This document shows, one piece after another, positions 40,759 to 52,239 of a stretch of DNA of 64,000 nucleotides. The stretch covers positions 62,001-126,000 of the forward strand of contig NZ_JABEZU010000003.1 of assembly GCF_013149785.1 (NCBI RefSeq), read 5' to 3'. A program made the position numbers and the translations under genes. The notes below the pieces were generated by a model. The model saw nothing but the letters and a program-made list of their open reading frames with translations. It was not told the origin of the DNA and did not search any database. The stretch's first letter is position 1. Each line of letters starts with the position of its first letter. The DNA comes from Isoptericola halotolerans. Lineage in GTDB: Bacteria > Actinomycetota > Actinomycetes > Actinomycetales > Cellulomonadaceae.

Positions 40759-42207
40759 ATGACAGCACGTGCCCAGATCGGTGTCACCGGACTCGCGGTG
40801 ATGGGTCGCAACCTCGCGCGCAACTTCGCCCGCCACGGCTACACCGTGGCCGTGCACAACCGCAGCTACGCCAAGACGCAGTCCCTGGTCGAGGAGGCCG
40901 GCCACGAGGGCGACTTCGTGCCGTCCGAGTCGATGGCCGACTTCGTGGCCTCGCTGGAACGACCGCGCAAGGTCGTCATCATGGTCAAGGCGGGTGCCGC
41001 GACCGACGCCGTCATCGACGAGCTGCTGCCGCTGCTCGAGGAGGGCGACATCGTCGTCGACGCCGGCAACGCGCACTTCCCGGACACCATCCGCCGCGAG
41101 GAGGCGCTGAGCGCCCGCGGCCTTCACTTCGTGGGCACCGGCGTGTCCGGCGGTGAGGAGGGCGCGCTGCTCGGCCCGTCGATCATGCCCGGTGGCACCC
41201 GCGAGTCCTACGAGTCGCTCGGGCCCATCCTCGAGGCGATCTCCGCGAAGGTCGACGGCACGCCGTGCTGCACCTACGTCGGCCCGAACGGTGCCGGGCA
41301 CTTCGTGAAGATGGTGCACAACGGCATCGAGTACGCCGACATGCAGCTCATCGCCGAGGCCTACGACCTGCTCAAGCAGGGACTCGGTGCCTCGGCGGCG
41401 GAGATCGGCCAGATCTTCGCCGAGTGGAACTCCGGCGACCTCGAGTCCTTCCTCATCGAGATCACGGCCGACGTGCTGCAGCACGTCGACGCCGAGACCG
41501 GGTCCGCCTTCGTCGACATCGTCCTGGACCAGGCCGAGCAGAAGGGCACCGGCCGCTGGACGGTGCAGAACGGCCTCGACCTGGGCGTGCCCATCACCGG
41601 CATCGCCGAGGCGACCTTCGCCCGCGCGCTGTCCGGCTCCGTCCCGCAGCGCGAGGCGGGCCACGCGGCGCTGCCCGCGCACACCCAGGAGTGGGAGATC
41701 GGGGCGGACGACGACTCCCGCGCCCGTTTCGTGGAGGACGTCCGGCTGGCCCTGTACGCGTCGAAGGTCGTCGCCTACTCCCAGGGCTTCGACCAGATCG
41801 CCGCGGCGTCCGCCGAGAACGGCTGGGACATCGACCGTGGCGCGATGGCCCGCATCTGGCGCGGTGGGTGCATCATCCGCGCCCGCTTCCTCAACCGGAT
41901 CACCGAGGCGTACGAGCGGGACGCCAACCTCCCGCTGCTGCTCGCCGACGAGTACTTCACGAACGCGGTCGGCAACGGTCTCGCGGCGTGGCGCCGGGTC
42001 GTGGCCGCCGCGGCGCAGAACGGCGTCCCGACGCCCGCCTTCAGCTCCTCGCTCGCGTACTACGACGGTGTGCGCGCCGAGCGCCTCCCGGCGGCGCTGA
42101 TCCAGGCGCAGCGCGACTTCTTCGGTGCGCACACCTACCGCCGGACCGACCGCGAGGGGACGTTCCACACCCAGTGGTCCGCCGACCGTACCGAGCAGGA
42201 GGCCTGA
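40759..42207 (+). CDS. gnd: 6-phosphogluconate dehydrogenase (decarboxylating)
   Basis: Predicted 482-residue NADP-dependent enzyme of the oxidative pentose phosphate pathway, making ribulose 5-phosphate, CO2 and NADPH. GVTGLAVMGRNLARN binds NADP, VSGGEEGALLGPSIMPGG binds substrate, and KMVHNGIEYADMQLI carries the catalytic Lys and the Glu. Full length; the C-terminal helical domain and tail are intact. It ends 8 bp before the first ATP-grasp gene, so read-through into the ligase-racemase genes is likely even though the pathways differ. Confidence 0.97.
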   Translation: MTARAQIGVTGLAVMGRNLARNFARHGYTVAVHNRSYAKTQSLVEEAGHEGDFVPSESMADFVASLERPRKVVIMVKAGAATDAVIDELLPLLEEGDIVVDAGNAHFPDTIRREEALSARGLHFVGTGVSGGEEGALLGPSIMPGGTRESYESLGPILEAISAKVDGTPCCTYVGPNGAGHFVKMVHNGIEYADMQLIAEAYDLLKQGLGASAAEIGQIFAEWNSGDLESFLIEITADVLQHVDAETGSAFVDIVLDQAEQKGTGRWTVQNGLDLGVPITGIAEATFARALSGSVPQREAGHAALPAHTQEWEIGADDDSRARFVEDVRLALYASKVVAYSQGFDQIAAASAENGWDIDRGAMARIWRGGCIIRARFLNRITEAYERDANLPLLLADEYFTNAVGNGLAAWRRVVAAAAQNGVPTPAFSSSLAYYDGVRAERLPAALIQAQRDFFGAHTYRRTDREGTFHTQWSADRTEQEA

Positions 42208-42215
42208 GAACCCTC

Positions 42216-43550
42216 GTGAGCAGCTCACCTGCGGAGTCCGGGGCCGCGGGCCCCGGGTTCCACCCCGTGATCGTCGGGTCGGACATCGGCGTGTACGGCC
42301 TGACGCGTTCCTTCCACGAGCAGTACGGCCTGCGGACCACCGTGGTCGCGTTCGCCGAGCCCGGCCCCATCGCGCACTCCCAGCTCATCGACACCGTGCT
42401 GTCCGGCACGGCGCCCGCCGAGATCGTCGCGACGCTGGAGCGGGTGGCCACCGAGCGGCGTGCGGCGGGCCACCGCGAGCCCTTGCTGCTGCAGTCGAAC
42501 ATGGACTGGGTGGTGCGGATCCTCGCCCACCACCGCGCCGTGCTCGAGACGGCGGGCTACGTGCTGCCGTACGCGGACGTCGAGCTCATCGACCGGATCT
42601 GCGACAAGGCCGAGTTCTCGGCCGTGTGCGCCGAGCTCGGCATCCCCACACCGGACACCGTCATCCAGGACTTCGCCGCCGCCGCGGACGAGCAGTGGAA
42701 GCCGGAACCCGTGGCCTTCGACTACCCGGTGATCGCCAAGCCGGCCTCCAGCGCCGACTACCACGACGTGCGGTTCACGGGGAAGAAGAAGATCTACGAG
42801 ATCGCCACGCCCGACGAGCTCGACCGGCTCTGGTCGTCCTTGCGTGGCGCCGGCTTCCGTGGCCGGTTCCTGGTGCAAGAGATGATCCCGGGCGACGACA
42901 CCCAGATGCGTTCGGTGACCACCTACTCCGACACCTCGGGCCGGGTCACCCTGCGGTGCTCCGCCCGGGTGCTCCTCGAGGAGCGCACCCCGGCCGCCCG
43001 GGGGAACCCCTCGGCGATGATCGTCGAGCCGGTCAAGGAGATCCTCGACGCCGCGCAGCGGATCTGCGAGCGCACCGGGTGGCGCGGGTTCGCGAACTTC
43101 GACGTCAAGCTGGACCCGCGCGACGGCGTCTACAAGTTCTTCGAGCAGAACCCCCGCATCGGCCGGAACAACTACTACCTCACCGCAGGTGGGCAGAACC
43201 CGACCGAGGTGCTCGTGGACGACGTGATCCGCGGCGAGCGTCGCGAGCTCGTCACCGCCCGGCGCGAGGTCCTGTACTCCGTGGTGCCGCACGCGCTGCT
43301 GCGCCGCTACGTGCTGGACCAGGGGCTGCGCGCCCGTGTGGTCGGGCTGATGCGCACCGGGCGGTCGGTGCACCCGCTGCGGTACCCCGCCGACGCGAGC
43401 CCGCGCCGTCGTCTCTACGTGCTGACCGCCCTGGTCAACCACGTGCGCAAGTACCGGCGCTACTACCCGACCAGTGCGCTGCGGGCCAACTACGACGCTG
43501 CGCAGGCCGCGTCGGCCGCCCGGCCCTCGGCGGGACGGGGGAGCCGATGA
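42216..43550 (+). CDS. ATP-grasp carboxylate-amine ligase 1 (candidate D-amino-acid bridge ligase)
   Basis: Predicted 444-residue ATP-grasp ligase. FHPVIVGSDIGVYGLTRSF opens an N-terminal preATP-grasp domain; FDYPVIAKPASSADYHDV and GKKKIYE supply nucleotide-binding lysines; FLVQEMIPGDDTQM the adenine strand; GFANFDVKLDPRDG and FFEQNPRIGRNNYY the metal Asp/Glu/Asn set. Overall form resembles the D-aspartate ligase (Asl) group that attaches D-Asp to the peptidoglycan stem. The C-terminus is basic and tyrosine-rich (NHVRKYRRYYP). The GTG start lies 8 bp after gnd with AGGAGG 13 nt upstream, a long spacing. The next gene overlaps by 4 bases. Substrate is inferred. Confidence 0.8.
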   Translation: MSSSPAESGAAGPGFHPVIVGSDIGVYGLTRSFHEQYGLRTTVVAFAEPGPIAHSQLIDTVLSGTAPAEIVATLERVATERRAAGHREPLLLQSNMDWVVRILAHHRAVLETAGYVLPYADVELIDRICDKAEFSAVCAELGIPTPDTVIQDFAAAADEQWKPEPVAFDYPVIAKPASSADYHDVRFTGKKKIYEIATPDELDRLWSSLRGAGFRGRFLVQEMIPGDDTQMRSVTTYSDTSGRVTLRCSARVLLEERTPAARGNPSAMIVEPVKEILDAAQRICERTGWRGFANFDVKLDPRDGVYKFFEQNPRIGRNNYYLTAGGQNPTEVLVDDVIRGERRELVTARREVLYSVVPHALLRRYVLDQGLRARVVGLMRTGRSVHPLRYPADASPRRRLYVLTALVNHVRKYRRYYPTSALRANYDAAQAASAARPSAGRGSR

Positions 43551-44842
43551 ACCGGCGGCTGCAACCGGTCGTCCTCGGCGGCGACATCGGTGCGTACTCC
43601 CTGGCGCGCACCTTCCACGAGGCGTACGGCGTCAAGCCGGTGGTCGTCTCCGGGATGTCCACCGGCCTGGTGCGACACTCGCGGATCCTGCACCACGTCG
43701 CCGAGCCGCGCATCGACGACCCCGACGCGATCGTGGCCCGGCTGCGTGCGGTGGCCGCCGAGCACACCGACGCCGACCTGATCGTCATGGGGTCGGCGGA
43801 CTGGCTCGTGCGCACCCTGGTGGAGAACCGCGACCGCCTGGAGGACCTCTACACGATCCCGTACGTCGGCGAGGAGCTGCTCCTGCGGCTGACCGACAAG
43901 GAGGGCTTCGGCGACCTGTGCGCCGAGCTCGGGATCGCGCACCCCACGACGGTCGTGCACGACGTCGCGGCCGGGGGCCGGCCGGACACCTCCGGTCTGA
44001 CGTTCCCCGTCATCGCCAAGGCGGCGAGCACCGCCGCCTATCACGACGTCGAGTTCGCGGGGAAGAAGAAGGTCTTCCTCGTCGACACGCGCGAGGAGCT
44101 CGAGGGGCTGCTGGGTCGGGTCCGCGACGCCGGGTACGCGGGCTCGTTCGTCATCCAGGACTACATCCCCGGCGACGACTCGGGGATGCGGATCCTCACC
44201 TGCTACTCGGACGCGAACGGCAAGGTGCGCTTCTCGGCGTTCGGCCACGTGCTCCTCGAGGAGCACACCCCCGGCGCCCTCGGCAACCCCGCCGGCATCA
44301 TCACGCAGGTGCAGCCCGACGTCGTCGAGCAGGCGACTCGCCTGCTGGAGCACGTCGGCTGGACGGGTTTCGCGAACTTCGACCTGAAGTACGACCCGCG
44401 CGACGGTCGCTACGTGTTCTTCGAGCTCAACCCGCGGCTGGGGCGCTCGAACTTCTACATCGCGGCGGCGGGGGCCCACGCGGTGAAGTTCTCGGTGCAC
44501 GAGCACCTGCACGGGCTCGACCCGGACCCTCGTGCGGTGCTCGGTGCCGACGTGCCGGTGTCCGCCACCGGCGAGCTCGAGGCCCGCAGCCTCTACACGG
44601 TGCTGCCGGGTCCGCTGCTGCGCCGCTACGTGCTCGACGGCGACGTCCGCGCCGAGGCGCGCCGGCTCGCACGTCGCGGACGGTCCACCAACCCGTTGTG
44701 GTACCGGGCCGAGACGGACCCGCGCCGCATCGCCTACCTCTGCGTCGCGCAGCTCAACCAGTGGCGCAAGTACGCGCGCCACTACCCGCTGGCCGAGGCG
44801 CGCCGGCTGGCCTGGCACGGGCCGGCGACGGGAACGGCGTGA
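43547..44842 (+). CDS. ATP-grasp carboxylate-amine ligase 2 (paralogue, candidate D-amino-acid bridge ligase)
   Basis: Predicted 431-residue paralogue of the preceding ligase with motifs in register: LQPVVLGGDIGAYSLARTFHE, LTFPVIAKAASTAAYHDVEF, GKKKVFLVDT, FVIQDYIPGDDSGM, GFANFDLKYDPRDG and FFELNPRLGRSNFY. Both carry all ATP and metal residues, so both look active; they differ in the N-terminal third and after residue 330, where acceptor specificity may lie. It also ends with a basic Trp/Tyr stretch (QLNQWRKYARHYP). ATGA overlap with ligase 1 and GGGGGAG 4-5 nt upstream of the ATG; its stop overlaps the racemase start. Confidence 0.8.
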   Translation: MNRRLQPVVLGGDIGAYSLARTFHEAYGVKPVVVSGMSTGLVRHSRILHHVAEPRIDDPDAIVARLRAVAAEHTDADLIVMGSADWLVRTLVENRDRLEDLYTIPYVGEELLLRLTDKEGFGDLCAELGIAHPTTVVHDVAAGGRPDTSGLTFPVIAKAASTAAYHDVEFAGKKKVFLVDTREELEGLLGRVRDAGYAGSFVIQDYIPGDDSGMRILTCYSDANGKVRFSAFGHVLLEEHTPGALGNPAGIITQVQPDVVEQATRLLEHVGWTGFANFDLKYDPRDGRYVFFELNPRLGRSNFYIAAAGAHAVKFSVHEHLHGLDPDPRAVLGADVPVSATGELEARSLYTVLPGPLLRRYVLDGDVRAEARRLARRGRSTNPLWYRAETDPRRIAYLCVAQLNQWRKYARHYPLAEARRLAWHGPATGTA

Positions 44843-45576
44843 GCGAGCCCGAGCCCCTCGCGGGTGCACCGACGCCGCCGGTCGGGGTGATCGGCGGCGT
44901 CGGCCCCCTCGCGACGGCGTACTTCCTGCAGCGTGTCGTCCAGCTGACGGAGGCCGACCGGGACCAGGAGCACGTCGACATGGTCGTGCTGAACCACGCC
45001 ACGGTGCCGGACCGGACGGACTTCGTCGTCGGCCGCTCGACGCTGGACCCGGGACCGGTGCTCGCCCGCGACGCACGGCGGCTGGAGGACTTCGGGGTCC
45101 GCTTCCTGGTGATGCCGTGCAACACGGCGCACTACTTCACCCAGCAGGTGCTCGACGCGATCACCGTGCCGTTCGTGTCGATCGTCGACGTGACCGTGGA
45201 GGCTGCCCGGCGCCGTGACCCGTCGCTGACGAAGGTCGGCCTGCTGGCCACCGCGGGGACCGTGGCCTCGGGGGTCTACGCCGACGCGTTCGGCGCCCAC
45301 GGCATCGAGGCGGTGACGCCCGACGAGGCCGACCAGGCGCTGGTCAGCACCGTGATCTACGACCAGGTCAAGGCGGGGCTCCCCGCCGACGTCGAGATCC
45401 TGCGTGCCGTGGCCGGGCGACTGGTCGAGCAGGGCGCCGGCGTCGTCGTGCTGGGCTGCACCGAGCTGTCGGTCGCCGCCGTCGATCACGGGCTGCTCGA
45501 CGAGCCGCCCTTCCTCGACTCGATGGACGAGCTCGTCCGCGCGACCATCACCCGCGCCGGTCACCGCGTCCGCTGA
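44839..45576 (+). CDS. Aspartate/glutamate racemase family protein
   Basis: Predicted 245-residue cofactor-independent amino-acid racemase. VGVIGGVGPLATAYFLQRVV is the N-terminal signature; the two catalytic cysteines are Cys94 in VMPCNTAHYF and Cys206 in VLGCTELS, as needed for two-base racemisation. PCNTAH and GCTEL with a family length near 240 favour aspartate racemase (RacX/YgeA group) over MurI. Its GTG overlaps the ligase 2 stop (GTGA). The coupling suggests it supplies D-Asp or D-Glu to the ligases, paralleling the asl-rac pair of Enterococcus faecium. Confidence 0.85.
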   Translation: MSEPEPLAGAPTPPVGVIGGVGPLATAYFLQRVVQLTEADRDQEHVDMVVLNHATVPDRTDFVVGRSTLDPGPVLARDARRLEDFGVRFLVMPCNTAHYFTQQVLDAITVPFVSIVDVTVEAARRRDPSLTKVGLLATAGTVASGVYADAFGAHGIEAVTPDEADQALVSTVIYDQVKAGLPADVEILRAVAGRLVEQGAGVVVLGCTELSVAAVDHGLLDEPPFLDSMDELVRATITRAGHRVR

Positions 45577-46123: not shown

Positions 46124-46918
46124 CTACGGCACCGTCGCCGCCGGTGCCCGGTGAGCCTCCGGGTGACCGCGCAGGTCCCAGCGGGCCAGCTGGGTGCCCG
46201 ACGGCGCGGCGAGCAGGTGGGCGAGCCGTGCCGCACGCACGCGGGCGGTGGCGGCCTCGCGAGCGGCGGCCACGATCCGGCCGGGACCCGGTCCCACGAG
46301 CAGGGGAGCGGTCGTCAGGCACAGCTCGTCCACCAGGTCCGCGGACAGCATCGAGGCCAGCAGGCGCGGACCGCCCTCGCACAGCACCCGGGACATCCCC
46401 CGCTCGGCGAGCGCGGCGGTGCCGGCCGCGAGATCGATCGTGTCGCCGTCGCCCGCCACGATCACCCGGTCGGCGCCGACCTGCGCGGACGCGGAGGTCT
46501 CACCGGCCGCACCGGTGACGACCCAGGGCGGTCGCGCGCCGTCCAGGACGCTGCCCGGGAGCCGTCCGCTGCGCGTGACCAGTGCCAGCTCCAGAGGCCG
46601 CTCGGCGAGGTGCCCCAGCCCACGGGGACGGGTCAGGGACGTGTATCCCTCGTCGCGGGCGGTCCCGGCGCCCACGAGCACGACGTCGGCGAGGGCGCGC
46701 AGGACGCGGAACACCCGCCAGTCGGCGGTGTCGTTGATCGAGCCCGACCGGCCGTCGTCGCCCCAGGCGCCCCCGTCCACGCTGACGATCATGTTCGCGC
46801 GCACGTGCCGGCGCGCGGGCAGGGCGTACAGCGAGGCCAGTCTCCGTTCCGCCGGGTCGGCGGGGACGTCCTCCGGTTCCGGGAGCAGCAGCCGCAGCGG
46901 CGGGGTGGTCGAACTCAC
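46124..46918 (-). CDS. RibD C-terminal / dihydrofolate-reductase-like pyrimidine reductase
   Basis: Predicted 264-residue stand-alone reductase domain of the riboflavin-pathway RibD family. VRANMIVSVDGGAWGDDGRSGSIND matches the substrate-binding start, ADVVLVGAGTARDEGY and RVLCEGGPRLLASMLSADLVDELCLT the NADPH-binding core. No deaminase domain is fused, as commonly seen in actinobacteria where the reductase is separate. Reductase substrate could be the riboflavin intermediate or another pteridine-like compound. The GTG start has TACGCT 7 nt upstream on its strand and is divergent from zapE by 38 bp. Confidence 0.82.
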   Translation of the reverse strand: MSSTTPPLRLLLPEPEDVPADPAERRLASLYALPARRHVRANMIVSVDGGAWGDDGRSGSINDTADWRVFRVLRALADVVLVGAGTARDEGYTSLTRPRGLGHLAERPLELALVTRSGRLPGSVLDGARPPWVVTGAAGETSASAQVGADRVIVAGDGDTIDLAAGTAALAERGMSRVLCEGGPRLLASMLSADLVDELCLTTAPLLVGPGPGRIVAAAREAATARVRAARLAHLLAAPSGTQLARWDLRGHPEAHRAPAATVP

Positions 46919-46956: not shown

Positions 46957-48051
46957 GTGACCGCCGTCCAGTCCTCCACCTCCCGCGCGATCCCGGGCCC
47001 CGACGACCTCACCCCCAGGTCCCTGGTGTCGGTCCGGCCCGCCGTGTCGTCCCGACGGCTGCTGGACGACCTCGTCCCGCCGCCGCACTTCGACGACGCC
47101 CGGTTCTCGACGTACCGGGCCAACCCGGAGCACCCGAGCCAGGCTCGCGTCCTGTCGCGCCTCGAGGAGGTGGCGGCCGAGATCGTCGCCCCGGCGCCCT
47201 CCGGTCTGCGGGCGCTGCTGGGCCGCCGTCGGCCGGCGCCGGCGGTGTACATGGACGGCGGGTTCGGCGTCGGCAAGACGCACCTGCTCACCTCGCTCGC
47301 GCACGCCGTCACCGAGGCCTCGGGCGAGGGGAGCGCCGCCTACGGCACCTTCGTGGAGTACACGAACCTCGTGGGTGCGCTGGGCTTCCTGCCCACCGTG
47401 GACGCCCTCGCCGGCCGCCAGCTGGTCTGCATCGACGAGTTCGAGCTGGACGACCCGGGCGACACCGTGCTGATGTCGCGACTCCTGCGTGAGCTCGCCG
47501 ACCGCGGCGTCGCGCTCGCCGCGACGTCCAACACCCTGCCCGACGCCCTGGGGGAGGGGCGGTTCGCCGCCGAGGACTTCCTGCGCGAGATCCAGGCGCT
47601 CGCCGAGCGCTTCGAGGTGCTCCGCGTCGACGGCGAGGACTACCGTCACCGAGCCGTCGTGACCGATGCCGAGCCGTTGCCGCTGGAGTCGGTCCGGGCG
47701 GCGGTCGAGGCCCGGCCACGAGCGGCGCTGGACGACTTCGCCGATCTCCTCGCCCACCTGTCCACGGTGCACCCGAGCCGGTACGGCGCCCTGCTCGACG
47801 ACGTCGAGATGGTCGCGCTGACCGGGGTGCGCCCGGTGACCCGTCAGGAGGTCGCGCTGCGGCTGGTCGTGCTGATCGACCGGCTCTACGACCGCGACGT
47901 CCCGGTGCTGCTCGCCGACGTGGACGCGGCGGCGCAGCGGGCGCTGTTCACCGACGAGATGCTCCGCGGTGGCTATCGCAAGAAGTACTTCCGGGCGCTC
48001 TCCCGCCTCGGTTCCCTGGCCCAGGAGGGCCGGCGCCTGGCCACCGACTGA
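46957..48051 (+). CDS. zapE: Cell division protein ZapE / AFG1-like ATPase
   Basis: Predicted 364-residue P-loop ATPase. Walker A is GGFGVGKTHLL, Walker B LVCIDEFELDDPGD, followed by the sensor region LAATSNTLPDALGEGRF, the ZapE/AFG1 signature. ZapE in proteobacteria associates with the Z ring; the actinobacterial role is less known. The C-terminal GGYRKKYFRALSRLGSL is conserved. It ends in a hairpin that spans both this stop codon and the convergent one. Confidence 0.9.
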   Translation: MTAVQSSTSRAIPGPDDLTPRSLVSVRPAVSSRRLLDDLVPPPHFDDARFSTYRANPEHPSQARVLSRLEEVAAEIVAPAPSGLRALLGRRRPAPAVYMDGGFGVGKTHLLTSLAHAVTEASGEGSAAYGTFVEYTNLVGALGFLPTVDALAGRQLVCIDEFELDDPGDTVLMSRLLRELADRGVALAATSNTLPDALGEGRFAAEDFLREIQALAERFEVLRVDGEDYRHRAVVTDAEPLPLESVRAAVEARPRAALDDFADLLAHLSTVHPSRYGALLDDVEMVALTGVRPVTRQEVALRLVVLIDRLYDRDVPVLLADVDAAAQRALFTDEMLRGGYRKKYFRALSRLGSLAQEGRRLATD

Positions 48052-51330: not shown

Positions 51331-51405
51331 TGGTGGGCGATACTGGGATCGAACCAGTGACCTCTTCCGTGTCAGGGAAGCGCGCTACCGCTGCGCCAAT
51401 CGCCC
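51331..51405 (-). tRNA. tRNA-Val(GAC), copy 1, CCA encoded
   Basis: Clover-leaf: acceptor GGGCGAT pairs with ATCGCCC, D-arm GGCGCAGCGGTAGCGC, anticodon stem CTTCC/GGAAG around the loop CTGACAC (anticodon GAC), T-arm with the normal TTCGATC loop. The sequence is identical to copy 2 at 51962-52036. It starts one nucleotide after the CCA of tRNA-Gly, implying a dicistronic precursor. Confidence 0.95.
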
Positions 51406-51406
51406 G

Positions 51407-51482
<76 letters not shown>

Positions 51483-51610
51483 ACGGCCGGACAGGCCCGA
51501 GGAGAAATCCCCGGCGATCCGGCGCCTGTGGAACATTACTGGACGTACCGCGTGCTGGTCCAATCGCGCCGGGTGTGACCTGCACCTCGACCGCGCGAGG
51601 AGGGCCGCCG

Positions 51611-51889
51611 TCAGGCGGACTGCCGGGCGGCGAGGCGGGCCTGGACCTCCGGGCGGCGCAGAGGAGGGACGGACGGCGGGGGCTGCTTCCGGGCAGGAAG
51701 CTCGCCCAGCAGCCGCGTCACGATCGCGGCGATCTCGGCCGCCGCGGTCTCGCACGGCTCGCGCGACGCGGCGGCCGCGTTCGACGCGACCCCGGTGACC
51801 TTGCGGACGAACTGGGCGGCGGCCGCCTCGATCTCCTCGGGGGTGGCCGGCGGCTCGAGGCCGCGCAGCGTGGTGATGTTCCGGCACAT
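51611..51889 (-). CDS. DUF2277 family protein
   Basis: Predicted 92-residue soluble protein of unknown function. The N-terminus MCRNITTLRGLEPPATPEEIEAAAAQFVRKVTG is the DUF2277 hallmark (CRNI then helices), and the C-terminal part is Pro/Arg-rich (RKQPPPSVPPLRRPEVQAR). TAGCGT on its strand (51897-51902) ends 7 nt before the ATG. It lies between two tRNA blocks transcribed in the same direction, downstream of the hairpin that ends block 2. Confidence 0.85.
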   Translation of the reverse strand: MCRNITTLRGLEPPATPEEIEAAAAQFVRKVTGVASNAAAASREPCETAAAEIAAIVTRLLGELPARKQPPPSVPPLRRPEVQARLAARQSA

Positions 51890-51922
51890 GGCCACGACGC
51901 TACGCCTGGCGGGTGGGCCATG

Positions 51923-51960
51923 CACGAGAGCCCCGGACCGATCGGTCCGGGGCTCTCGTG
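51923..51960 (-). terminator. Perfect 38-nt palindrome after tRNA block 2
   Basis: A 19-bp perfect inverted repeat; its inner 34 bases equal the hairpin of block 1. It starts 1-2 nt past the encoded CCA of tRNA-Val and separates the tRNA operon from the DUF2277 promoter. No T-run follows. Confidence 0.75.
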
Positions 51961-51961
51961 G

Positions 51962-52036
51962 TGGTGGGCGATACTGGGATCGAACCAGTGACCTCTTCCG
52001 TGTCAGGGAAGCGCGCTACCGCTGCGCCAATCGCCC
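51962..52036 (-). tRNA. tRNA-Val(GAC), copy 2, CCA encoded
   Basis: Same sequence as copy 1 (acceptor GGGCGAT, anticodon loop CTGACAC, normal T-loop). The region 51925-52036 matches 51294-51405 with a constant 631-bp offset and one visible mismatch. Confidence 0.95.
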
Positions 52037-52037
52037 G

Positions 52038-52108
52038 AGGTGGGTACGGGATTCGAACCCGTGTATACGGCTTTGCAGGCCGCTGCCTCGCCTCTCGGCC
52101 AACCCACC
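52038..52108 (-). tRNA. tRNA-Cys(GCA), CCA not encoded
   Basis: Acceptor GGTGGGT/ACCCACC, D-arm with GGCCGAGAGGC, anticodon loop CTGCAAA (GCA), T-loop TTCGAAT. The discriminator T is followed by CGG, so CCA must be added. Lies one nucleotide from tRNA-Val copy 2 in a Gly-Cys-Val order common in actinobacteria. Confidence 0.93.
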
Positions 52109-52166
52109 AGGAGAAGACGTGCTCTCCCGCTTCCTCGTCTCCGAGACCGCAGGGAGGGGGCCTCCG

Positions 52167-52239
<73 letters not shown>

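What the first reader, a model, noticed from the sequence alone, without database searches (positions are those of the whole stretch)
42216..45576. Two coupled ATP-grasp ligases plus Asp/Glu racemase: candidate two-step D-amino-acid peptidoglycan bridge system
Seen: two paralogous ligases with complete ATP and metal motifs and a racemase with both catalytic cysteines (94, 206), joined by ATGA and GTGA overlaps. Known: in Enterococcus faecium a single ATP-grasp D-aspartate ligase is encoded with an aspartate racemase and adds D-Asp to the stem Lys; many Micrococcales have D-Asp or D-Glu in their cross-bridge (A4 types). Inference: this locus makes and attaches the D-residue; the duplication could mean two successive additions, two acceptors (alpha/beta carboxyl), or D-Asp versus D-Glu specificity. 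A two-ligase arrangement is, as far as I know, not characterised.
Basis: partly seen in the sequence, partly recalled or inferred. Interest (0 to 1): 0.85.

Follow-up and report, generated by a model that had tools for sequence, protein, structure and literature searches.

The report
Two-ligase D-amino-acid wall-bridge cassette
Three genes in a soil bacterium (Isoptericola) look like the machinery that makes D-aspartate and builds the D-amino-acid bridge that ties its cell wall together, with a second ligase from a D-glutamate-type branch; the set sits in a chromosomal slot where relatives carry other bridge ligases.

Summary
In detail: 42216-45576 carries two intact ATP-grasp ligases (Lig1, Lig2; 43% identical) and an Asp/Glu-type racemase, joined by ATGA and GTGA overlaps. 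The genome is an Isoptericola. 17 of 18 genomes of the genus (own included) have tandem ligases; 16 have the triad, one has Lig1 with another ligase and no adjacent racemase.

The ligases form two deep clades. Clade D (Lig2) has a racemase beside it in 41 of 42 genes and shares clade-discriminating residues with ligases of lactobacilli. Clade E (Lig1) has no racemase of its own and occurs in taxa reported with D-Glu bridges. FemAB bridge enzymes, where present, lie near a ligase in 20 of 22 genomes; Isoptericola has none. The cassette sits after gnd, in a slot whose content varies across the family.

Best reading: Lig2 plus racemase adds D-Asp to the stem (well supported); Lig1 is a D-Glu-type ligase on the same bridge, perhaps adding a second residue (inferred). 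Against the latter: Xylanimonas cellulosilytica has the same triad and is published as L-Lys-D-Asp. Reported composition agreed with racemase presence in 8 of 10 comparable taxa (p=0.10), or 8 of 11 if one set aside afterwards is counted.

The parts
42216..43550 (+). Lig1: clade E (D-Glu-type, inferred) ATP-grasp ligase, 444 aa, with residues R247 and Q311 typical of Lig1
   Evidence: R in 23 of 24 and Q in 24 of 24 Lig1 sequences
43547..44842 (+). Lig2: clade D (racemase-linked, D-Asp-type) ATP-grasp ligase, 431 aa, with S83, I216, R228, L298, S301
44839..45576 (+). Asp/Glu-type racemase, 245 aa, Cys94 and Cys207; inferred aspartate racemase
40759..42207 (+). gnd (6-phosphogluconate dehydrogenase; name given from recall, no family scan made): conserved left border of the ligase slot
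   Evidence: directly upstream of the first ligase in 63 of 115 held ligase loci, some of them duplicates
46124..46918 (-). RibD_C-domain gene, part of the recurring right flank of the slot
46957..48051 (+). AFG1-like ATPase, part of the recurring right flank of the slot

Best explanation
The cassette builds the interpeptide bridge of the peptidoglycan in the cytoplasm. The racemase makes D-Asp; Lig2 activates a D-Asp carboxylate with ATP and joins it to the side-chain amine of the stem diamino acid, as AslA does in lactic acid bacteria. Lig1 is a paralogue from the branch without racemase and uses D-Glu (already made for the stem peptide) or a similar donor on the same precursor, most likely as a second bridge residue. 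Shown by sequence: the genes, the clades, the racemase linkage, the slot, and the absence of FemAB matches. Inferred: donors, acceptor, order, and that both residues lie in one bridge.
For: A racemase lies within 2 kb of 41 of 42 clade D genes and of 4 of 73 other clade E genes, those four being Brachybacterium loci that also hold a clade D gene. In 50 named genomes a strong racemase match (204 bits or more) is present in 19 of 20 with a clade D ligase and 0 of 30 without (7 of the remaining 31 genomes, Demequina among them, have a weaker match of at most 81 bits). Ligases of three lactobacilli (L. curvatus with a racemase next door, L. crispatus next to asnB, L. fermentum) are 27-31% identical to the window pair and have C, Y, K, S at four columns where clade D mostly has S/C, H/Y, R/K, S and clade E has N, T/V, T/S, N; AslA with racD is the known D-Asp system (PMC4155827, passages). 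FemAB lies near a ligase in 20 of 22 genomes that have it and gave no match in 18 of 18 genomes of the window's genus. Lig1 is kept where the partner is clade E and no racemase is adjacent (G003, G035). Brachybacterium and Helcobacillus loci show a like pattern: one clade E ligase of a common branch plus either a second clade E ligase (5 loci) or clade D with racemase (4 loci). Reported composition fits racemase presence in 8 of 10 taxa.
Against: X. cellulosilytica has Lig1, Lig2 and racemase but is published as L-Lys-D-Asp; Isoptericola is also L-Lys-D-Asp by my recall. A. (Cellulomonas) carbonis has clade D plus racemase but is reported as L-Orn-D-Glu. B. nesterenkovii is reported with Asp, yet the genome that fits it by size has no racemase match. 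I had also expected a racemase in A. solisilvae and A. fermentans: the genome that fits A. solisilvae by size has none; both are reported with L-Asp. A. subterranea (D-Ser-D-Glu) and A. neuii, now Winkia (Lys-Lys-D-Glu), have one ligase and no FemAB match, so bridge length is not simply ligases plus Fem. Bifidobacteria carry clade E ligases although D-Asp bridges are recalled for some of them. Promicromonospora and Myceligenerans carry both clades at separate loci. The composition test alone is weak (one-sided p=0.10). No donor or acceptor was measured.
Confidence: 0.52

Rival explanations
1. The bridge is the single D-Asp that is published; Lig2 and the racemase make it, and Lig1 acts on a different acceptor or only under some conditions (another wall polymer, a substituent on the stem D-Glu, or D-Glu in place of D-Asp when D-Asp is short).
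For: Xylanimonas with the same triad is published as L-Lys-D-Asp. Lig1 has residues of its own, R247 and Q311, that the other clade E ligases listed lack.
Against: Lig1 overlaps Lig2 in the window and is kept in 17 of 17 genomes of the genus in which a cassette was found, also when the partner ligase is another one. The recurring pair in Brachybacterium suggests a shared bridge.
Confidence: 0.33
2. Both ligases use D-Asp and are partly redundant, or form one complex with Lig1 as helper subunit.
For: Overlapping genes and common descent.
Against: Lig1 has the clade E state at the five discriminating columns, keeps the invariant columns, and occurs without an adjacent racemase in G003 and G035.
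Confidence: 0.08
3. The genes serve a peptide natural product or another non-wall ligation.
For: The best structural matches include an L-amino acid ligase and PylC besides PurK and biotin carboxylases.
Against: Conservation in the genus; of seven neighbouring frames scanned, five gave thiolase, DUF3000, 3'-5' exonuclease, RibD_C and AFG1 domains, two gave nothing, and none an NRPS or transporter domain; FemAB neighbours in other lineages; homology to ligases of lactobacilli.
Confidence: 0.04
4. The racemase is a cysteate racemase, as NCBIfam would name it, and the donor is D-cysteate or the gene is unrelated to the bridge.
For: P0003 scores 231.7 bits to CuyB, over its cut-off of 190, and better than to asp_race (205.9); the L. 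curvatus racemase is the other way round (185 to CuyB, 238.7 to asp_race).
Against: All five other clade D-linked racemases tested pass the CuyB cut-off, among them those of X. cellulosilytica and A. bogoriensis, whose bridges are reported with D-Asp, so passing it does not exclude an aspartate racemase.
Confidence: 0.03

Closest known systems
AslA/Aslfm D-aspartate ligase with RacD aspartate racemase (Lactococcus lactis, Enterococcus faecium, lactobacilli)
   Same: ATP-grasp ligase, linked racemase, homologous sequence (27-31% to three ligases of lactobacilli), shared discriminating residues for Lig2; the beta-aspartyl phosphate chemistry is known there (PMC4155827, passages)
   Different: Two tandem ligases of different clades instead of one, in a slot after gnd. 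Aslfm and AslA of L. lactis themselves were not available for comparison.
Single clade E ligase of Cellulomonas and Pengzhenrongella
   Same: Same slot after gnd in those loci where gnd is held; the discriminating residues of Lig1, with few exceptions in the clade
   Different: One ligase, no racemase beside it; Lig1 adds R247 and Q311. That this clade is a D-Glu ligase is inferred, not shown.
Brachybacterium two-ligase loci
   Same: One clade E ligase of a common branch plus a clade E or a clade D-racemase partner
   Different: Meso-DAP wall, no gnd in the held stretch, and the clade D pair lies on the opposite strand.
FemABX tRNA-dependent bridge transferases
   Same: Work on the same kind of bridge (PMC2922099, passages); found near ligases of this family in other genera
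   Different: Different fold and donor; no match in the window's genus.

Membership tests
Asl-type D-aspartate ligase system | ATP-grasp ligase homologous to ligases of lactobacilli | tested here: met
   both window ligases 27-31% identical to three of them, E from 8e-53 to 4e-77; ATP-grasp fold. The D-Asp bridge of these three species is recalled; PMC4155827 states it for most lactobacilli.
Asl-type D-aspartate ligase system | Linked aspartate-type racemase with two cysteines | tested here: met
   Cys94 and Cys207, 38% identical to the L. curvatus racemase over 198 residues; PF01177 and TIGR00035 over cut-off
Asl-type D-aspartate ligase system | Discriminating residues shared with the ligases of lactobacilli (Lig2) | tested here: met
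   S/C, H/Y, R/K, S at Lig2 83, 132, 228, 301; not shared at 216 and 298. The role of these residues is inferred.
Asl-type D-aspartate ligase system | The same residues in Lig1 | tested here: not met
   N95, T145, T245, N318, the clade E state; Lig1 is therefore not filed as a D-Asp ligase
Asl-type D-aspartate ligase system | Ligation of D-Asp to a peptidoglycan precursor | not testable with these tools
   needs an enzyme assay
Proposed D-glutamate bridge ligase (clade E) | No linked racemase; found where the bridge is reported with D-Glu | tested here: inconclusive
   4 of 73 other clade E genes near a racemase; D-Glu reported for Pengzhenrongella, A. subterranea and A. neuii; I know of no assayed clade E enzyme
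CuyB cysteate racemase (NCBIfam) | Score over the curated cut-off | tested here: inconclusive
   231.7 bits against 190, but racemases of organisms reported with D-Asp also pass
FemABX transferase route | PF02388 match in the genome | tested here: not met
   0 of 18 genomes of the genus; the same model rang in 6 of the 38 genomes of that call and in 3 of 14 controls

The most novel reading that the evidence does not exclude
Isoptericola and Xylanimonas build a mixed D,D bridge (D-Glu and D-Asp) with two ATP-grasp ligases and no tRNA-dependent enzyme, their L-Lys-D-Asp type being incomplete; and the slot after gnd is a swappable peptidoglycan-type locus whose cassettes set the bridge across the family.
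Probability: 0.33. Interest if true: 0.8.

Novelty: new variant of a known kind. Interest (0 to 1): 0.6.

Why it matters
Peptidoglycan type (D-Asp, D-Glu, one or two residues) is a long-used taxonomic marker of Actinobacteria whose genes are, as far as I know, mostly unassigned. This analysis proposes the genes, a set of residues that separates D-Asp-type from D-Glu-type ligases, and a chromosomal slot whose content needs 11 changes on a gnd tree (fewer if only the well-supported branches are trusted). It would make bridge type predictable from a genome and testable, and it predicts a second bridge residue in Isoptericola that would correct published wall types.

Tried and rejected
Direct comparison with Aslfm of E. 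faecium was not possible; sequence search of solved structures gave only weak matches to D-Ala-D-Ala ligase and carbamoyl-phosphate synthetase, so ligases of lactobacilli found on plasmid records served instead. The wall composition of Isoptericola was sought without result; PMC11839211 and PMC11382707 held nothing on it (passages). The rule 'bridge length = ligases + FemAB' was considered and dropped because of Actinotalea and Winkia. Calling the racemase a cysteate racemase was considered less likely, not excluded. The search of the genus of G022 covered 5 genomes, 0 of 5 with a racemase match, and did not find C. flavigena, whose bridge contains D-Asp (PMC3035266, passages).

Left out of the 8 of 10 count: A. 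solisilvae (reported L-Asp; G115, which fits by size and is 9% contaminated, has no racemase match; I set it aside after seeing this, and with it the count is 8 of 11); A. fermentans (reported L-Asp; no genome fits by both size and contig number); B. faecium (two genomes of its size and contig number, G300 without and G309 with a match); C. flavigena (genome not identified).

Exceptions to the discriminating residues: L128 (clade E-like, R at Lig1 column 245, no racemase in the held stretch), L127 and L131 (mixed states), L130 (mixed, racemase beside it). The residues were picked on the same sequences that define the clades; the ligases of lactobacilli are the only check from outside, and they agree at four columns and not at the others. 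The gnd tree has a weak backbone, and gnd may travel with the cassette.
Full report
WHAT IS THERE. The three genes are as described: Lig1 42216-43550, Lig2 43547-44842 and a racemase 44839-45576, with ATGA and GTGA overlaps, 8 bases after the stop of gnd. The ligases are 43% identical. NCBIfam and Pfam recognise them weakly as carbamoyl-phosphate-synthase-like ATP-grasp proteins. Confident models (pLDDT 94.4 and 94.1) match ATP-grasp enzymes in the PDB at 12-19% identity among the 50 hits listed for each. The racemase cysteines are 94 and 207. Synonymous change exceeds non-synonymous change (dS 0.46, dN 0.05 for Lig1 against L003).

ORGANISM AND CONSERVATION. In one search, 42 of 58 genomes match Lig1; in the genus 17 of 18 (own included) have two adjacent ligases, and the one without a match is 74% complete. 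One search shows the racemase, in part where the held stretch ends, beside the pair in 16 of these 17; G003 has Lig1 with a clade E ligase and no adjacent racemase. G035 of a sister genus has that second arrangement too.

TWO CLADES. A quick tree of 146 ligase rows splits, midpoint rooted, into clade D (48 rows) and clade E (98 rows, Lig1 included) with SH-aLRT 99. Some long branches meet, so inner placements are unsure. With duplicates taken out, a racemase lies within 2 kb of 41 of 42 clade D genes (not Demequina), 4 of 73 other clade E genes (Brachybacterium loci that also hold clade D) and 17 of 19 Lig1 genes, which reflects their Lig2 partner. I then searched 50 named genomes, the limit of a call: I had listed 60 of the 80 loci, leaving out most uncultured genomes, and dropped ten more, eight or so of them further Cellulomonas and other clade E loci. 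A racemase match of 204 bits or more occurs in 19 of 20 genomes with clade D and 0 of 30 without; 7 further matches are of 81 bits or less, six in genomes without clade D and one in Demequina, besides second matches in two genomes. Two clade assignments were checked by fetching L151 and L152.

DISCRIMINATING RESIDUES. Five columns separate the clades completely or nearly so: Lig1 N95, S233, T245, I315, N318 against Lig2 S83, I216, R228, L298, S301. Lig1 has the clade E state at all five and in addition R247 and Q311, in 23 of 24 and 24 of 24 Lig1 sequences. Ligases of L. curvatus, L. crispatus and L. fermentum carry C, Y, K, S at the columns of Lig2 83, 132, 228 and 301, a clade D-like state, and differ from both clades at others. 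In L. curvatus the ligase follows aspS and a racemase, in L. crispatus it follows asnB, in L. fermentum no racemase is annotated in the stretch shown. That most lactobacilli have D-Asp or D-Asn bridges, made by AslA, with racD in the same operon in L. lactis, is from PMC4155827 (passages); the types of these three species are recalled. That ATP-grasp ligases make D-Asp and D-Glu cross-links is stated in general in PMC2922099 (passages).

CROSS-BRIDGE CONTEXT. FemAB, the family of tRNA-dependent bridge enzymes, is matched in 22 of the 50 named genomes and lies within about 7 kb of a ligase in 20 of them (not in G076 and G091; read from the coordinates). It gave no match in 18 of 18 genomes of the window's genus and in X. 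cellulosilytica. So the ligase family belongs to bridge synthesis, and in Isoptericola the ATP-grasp ligases are the only bridge enzymes found. The model rang in 3 of 14 control genomes.

A VARIABLE SLOT. gnd lies directly upstream of the first ligase in 63 of 115 held ligase loci (duplicates included); two more are adjacent but scored negative because their frames were taken stop to stop. The slot holds E, D plus racemase, Lig1 plus D plus racemase, or Lig1 plus E, and is often followed by the RibD_C and AFG1 genes. On a gnd tree of 58 rows the four states need 11 changes (least possible 3; shuffled mean 24.9). The backbone is weak; starred branches force at least 4 changes each for E and for D plus racemase.

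TEST AGAINST PUBLISHED WALLS (passages only). Match: A. bogoriensis D-Asp, racemase; A. subterranea D-Ser-D-Glu, none (PMC8878594); Pengzhenrongella D-Glu, genus level, none in P. frigida (PMC11165906); A. neuii (Winkia) Lys-Lys-D-Glu, none (PMC6113628); X. cellulosilytica D-Asp, racemase (PMC3035249); A. ferrariae D-Asp, racemase, by size; B. avium with Asp, racemase, and B. vulturis without Asp, none, by size (PMC6090031). Mismatch: A. carbonis D-Glu, racemase; B. nesterenkovii Asp, none, by size (PMC10581053). That is 8 of 10, one-sided Fisher p 0.10, suggestive only; A. solisilvae, for which I had expected a racemase, would make it 8 of 11. The racemase was found in 8 of 19 genomes of the Actinotalea group and in 15 of 38 of the Brachybacterium group.

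MECHANISM. Lig2 with the racemase fits the AslA/RacD scheme: L-Asp to D-Asp, activation by ATP, ligation to the side-chain amine of the stem diamino acid. I put this part at about 0.85. Lig1 is of the branch that needs no racemase of its own, because D-Glu is already made for the stem peptide (recalled biochemistry). It stays when the partner differs, as in Brachybacterium, where a clade E ligase of a common branch pairs with a second clade E ligase or with clade D. Two-residue D-Glu-D-Glu and D-Asp-D-Glu bridges in Brachybacterium are recalled, not read; the papers seen give amino acid content and type A4gamma. The simplest extension is a second residue in the Isoptericola bridge, about even odds given the published L-Lys-D-Asp of Xylanimonas.

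VERDICT. A real, conserved system; a new variant (tandem, two-clade) of the known Asl/RacD kind; the D-Asp part is solid by inference, the function of Lig1 is open and testable.

Noticed in passing
window 51331-52239: A cluster of five tRNA genes on the minus strand (Val-Gly, then Val-Cys-Gly) with repeated anticodons.
   Followed up: no
L102 and L036: L102, titled Xylanimonas cellulosilytica 352_XCEL, has a ligase that groups with Actinomyces relatives, and L036, titled Cellulosimicrobium cellulans DE0111, groups with Cellulomonas in the ligase and gnd trees; the titles look wrong.
   Followed up: partly
L057/L151, L065/L152, L060/L094, L095/L027: Myceligenerans, Promicromonospora and Antribacter carry a clade E ligase near FemAB and, at a separate locus, a clade D ligase with racemase. 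That L027 (G019) is the Antribacter genome is inferred from near-identical coordinates.
   Followed up: partly
L047: Actinotalea subterranea is reported with D-Ser in its bridge but has one ligase and no FemAB match; the enzyme for D-Ser is unexplained.
   Followed up: no
L109:4700-7200: Demequina sediminis has tandem clade E and clade D ligases without a nearby racemase; its clade D ligase has A where 46 of 48 clade D rows have R or K.
   Followed up: partly
L088, L090, L096, L097, L106, L110, L111, L117: Clostridia carry clade D-like ligases, with a racemase alongside in the seven loci from the genome scan; L117 (Subdoligranulum plasmid record) was not checked for one.
   Followed up: partly
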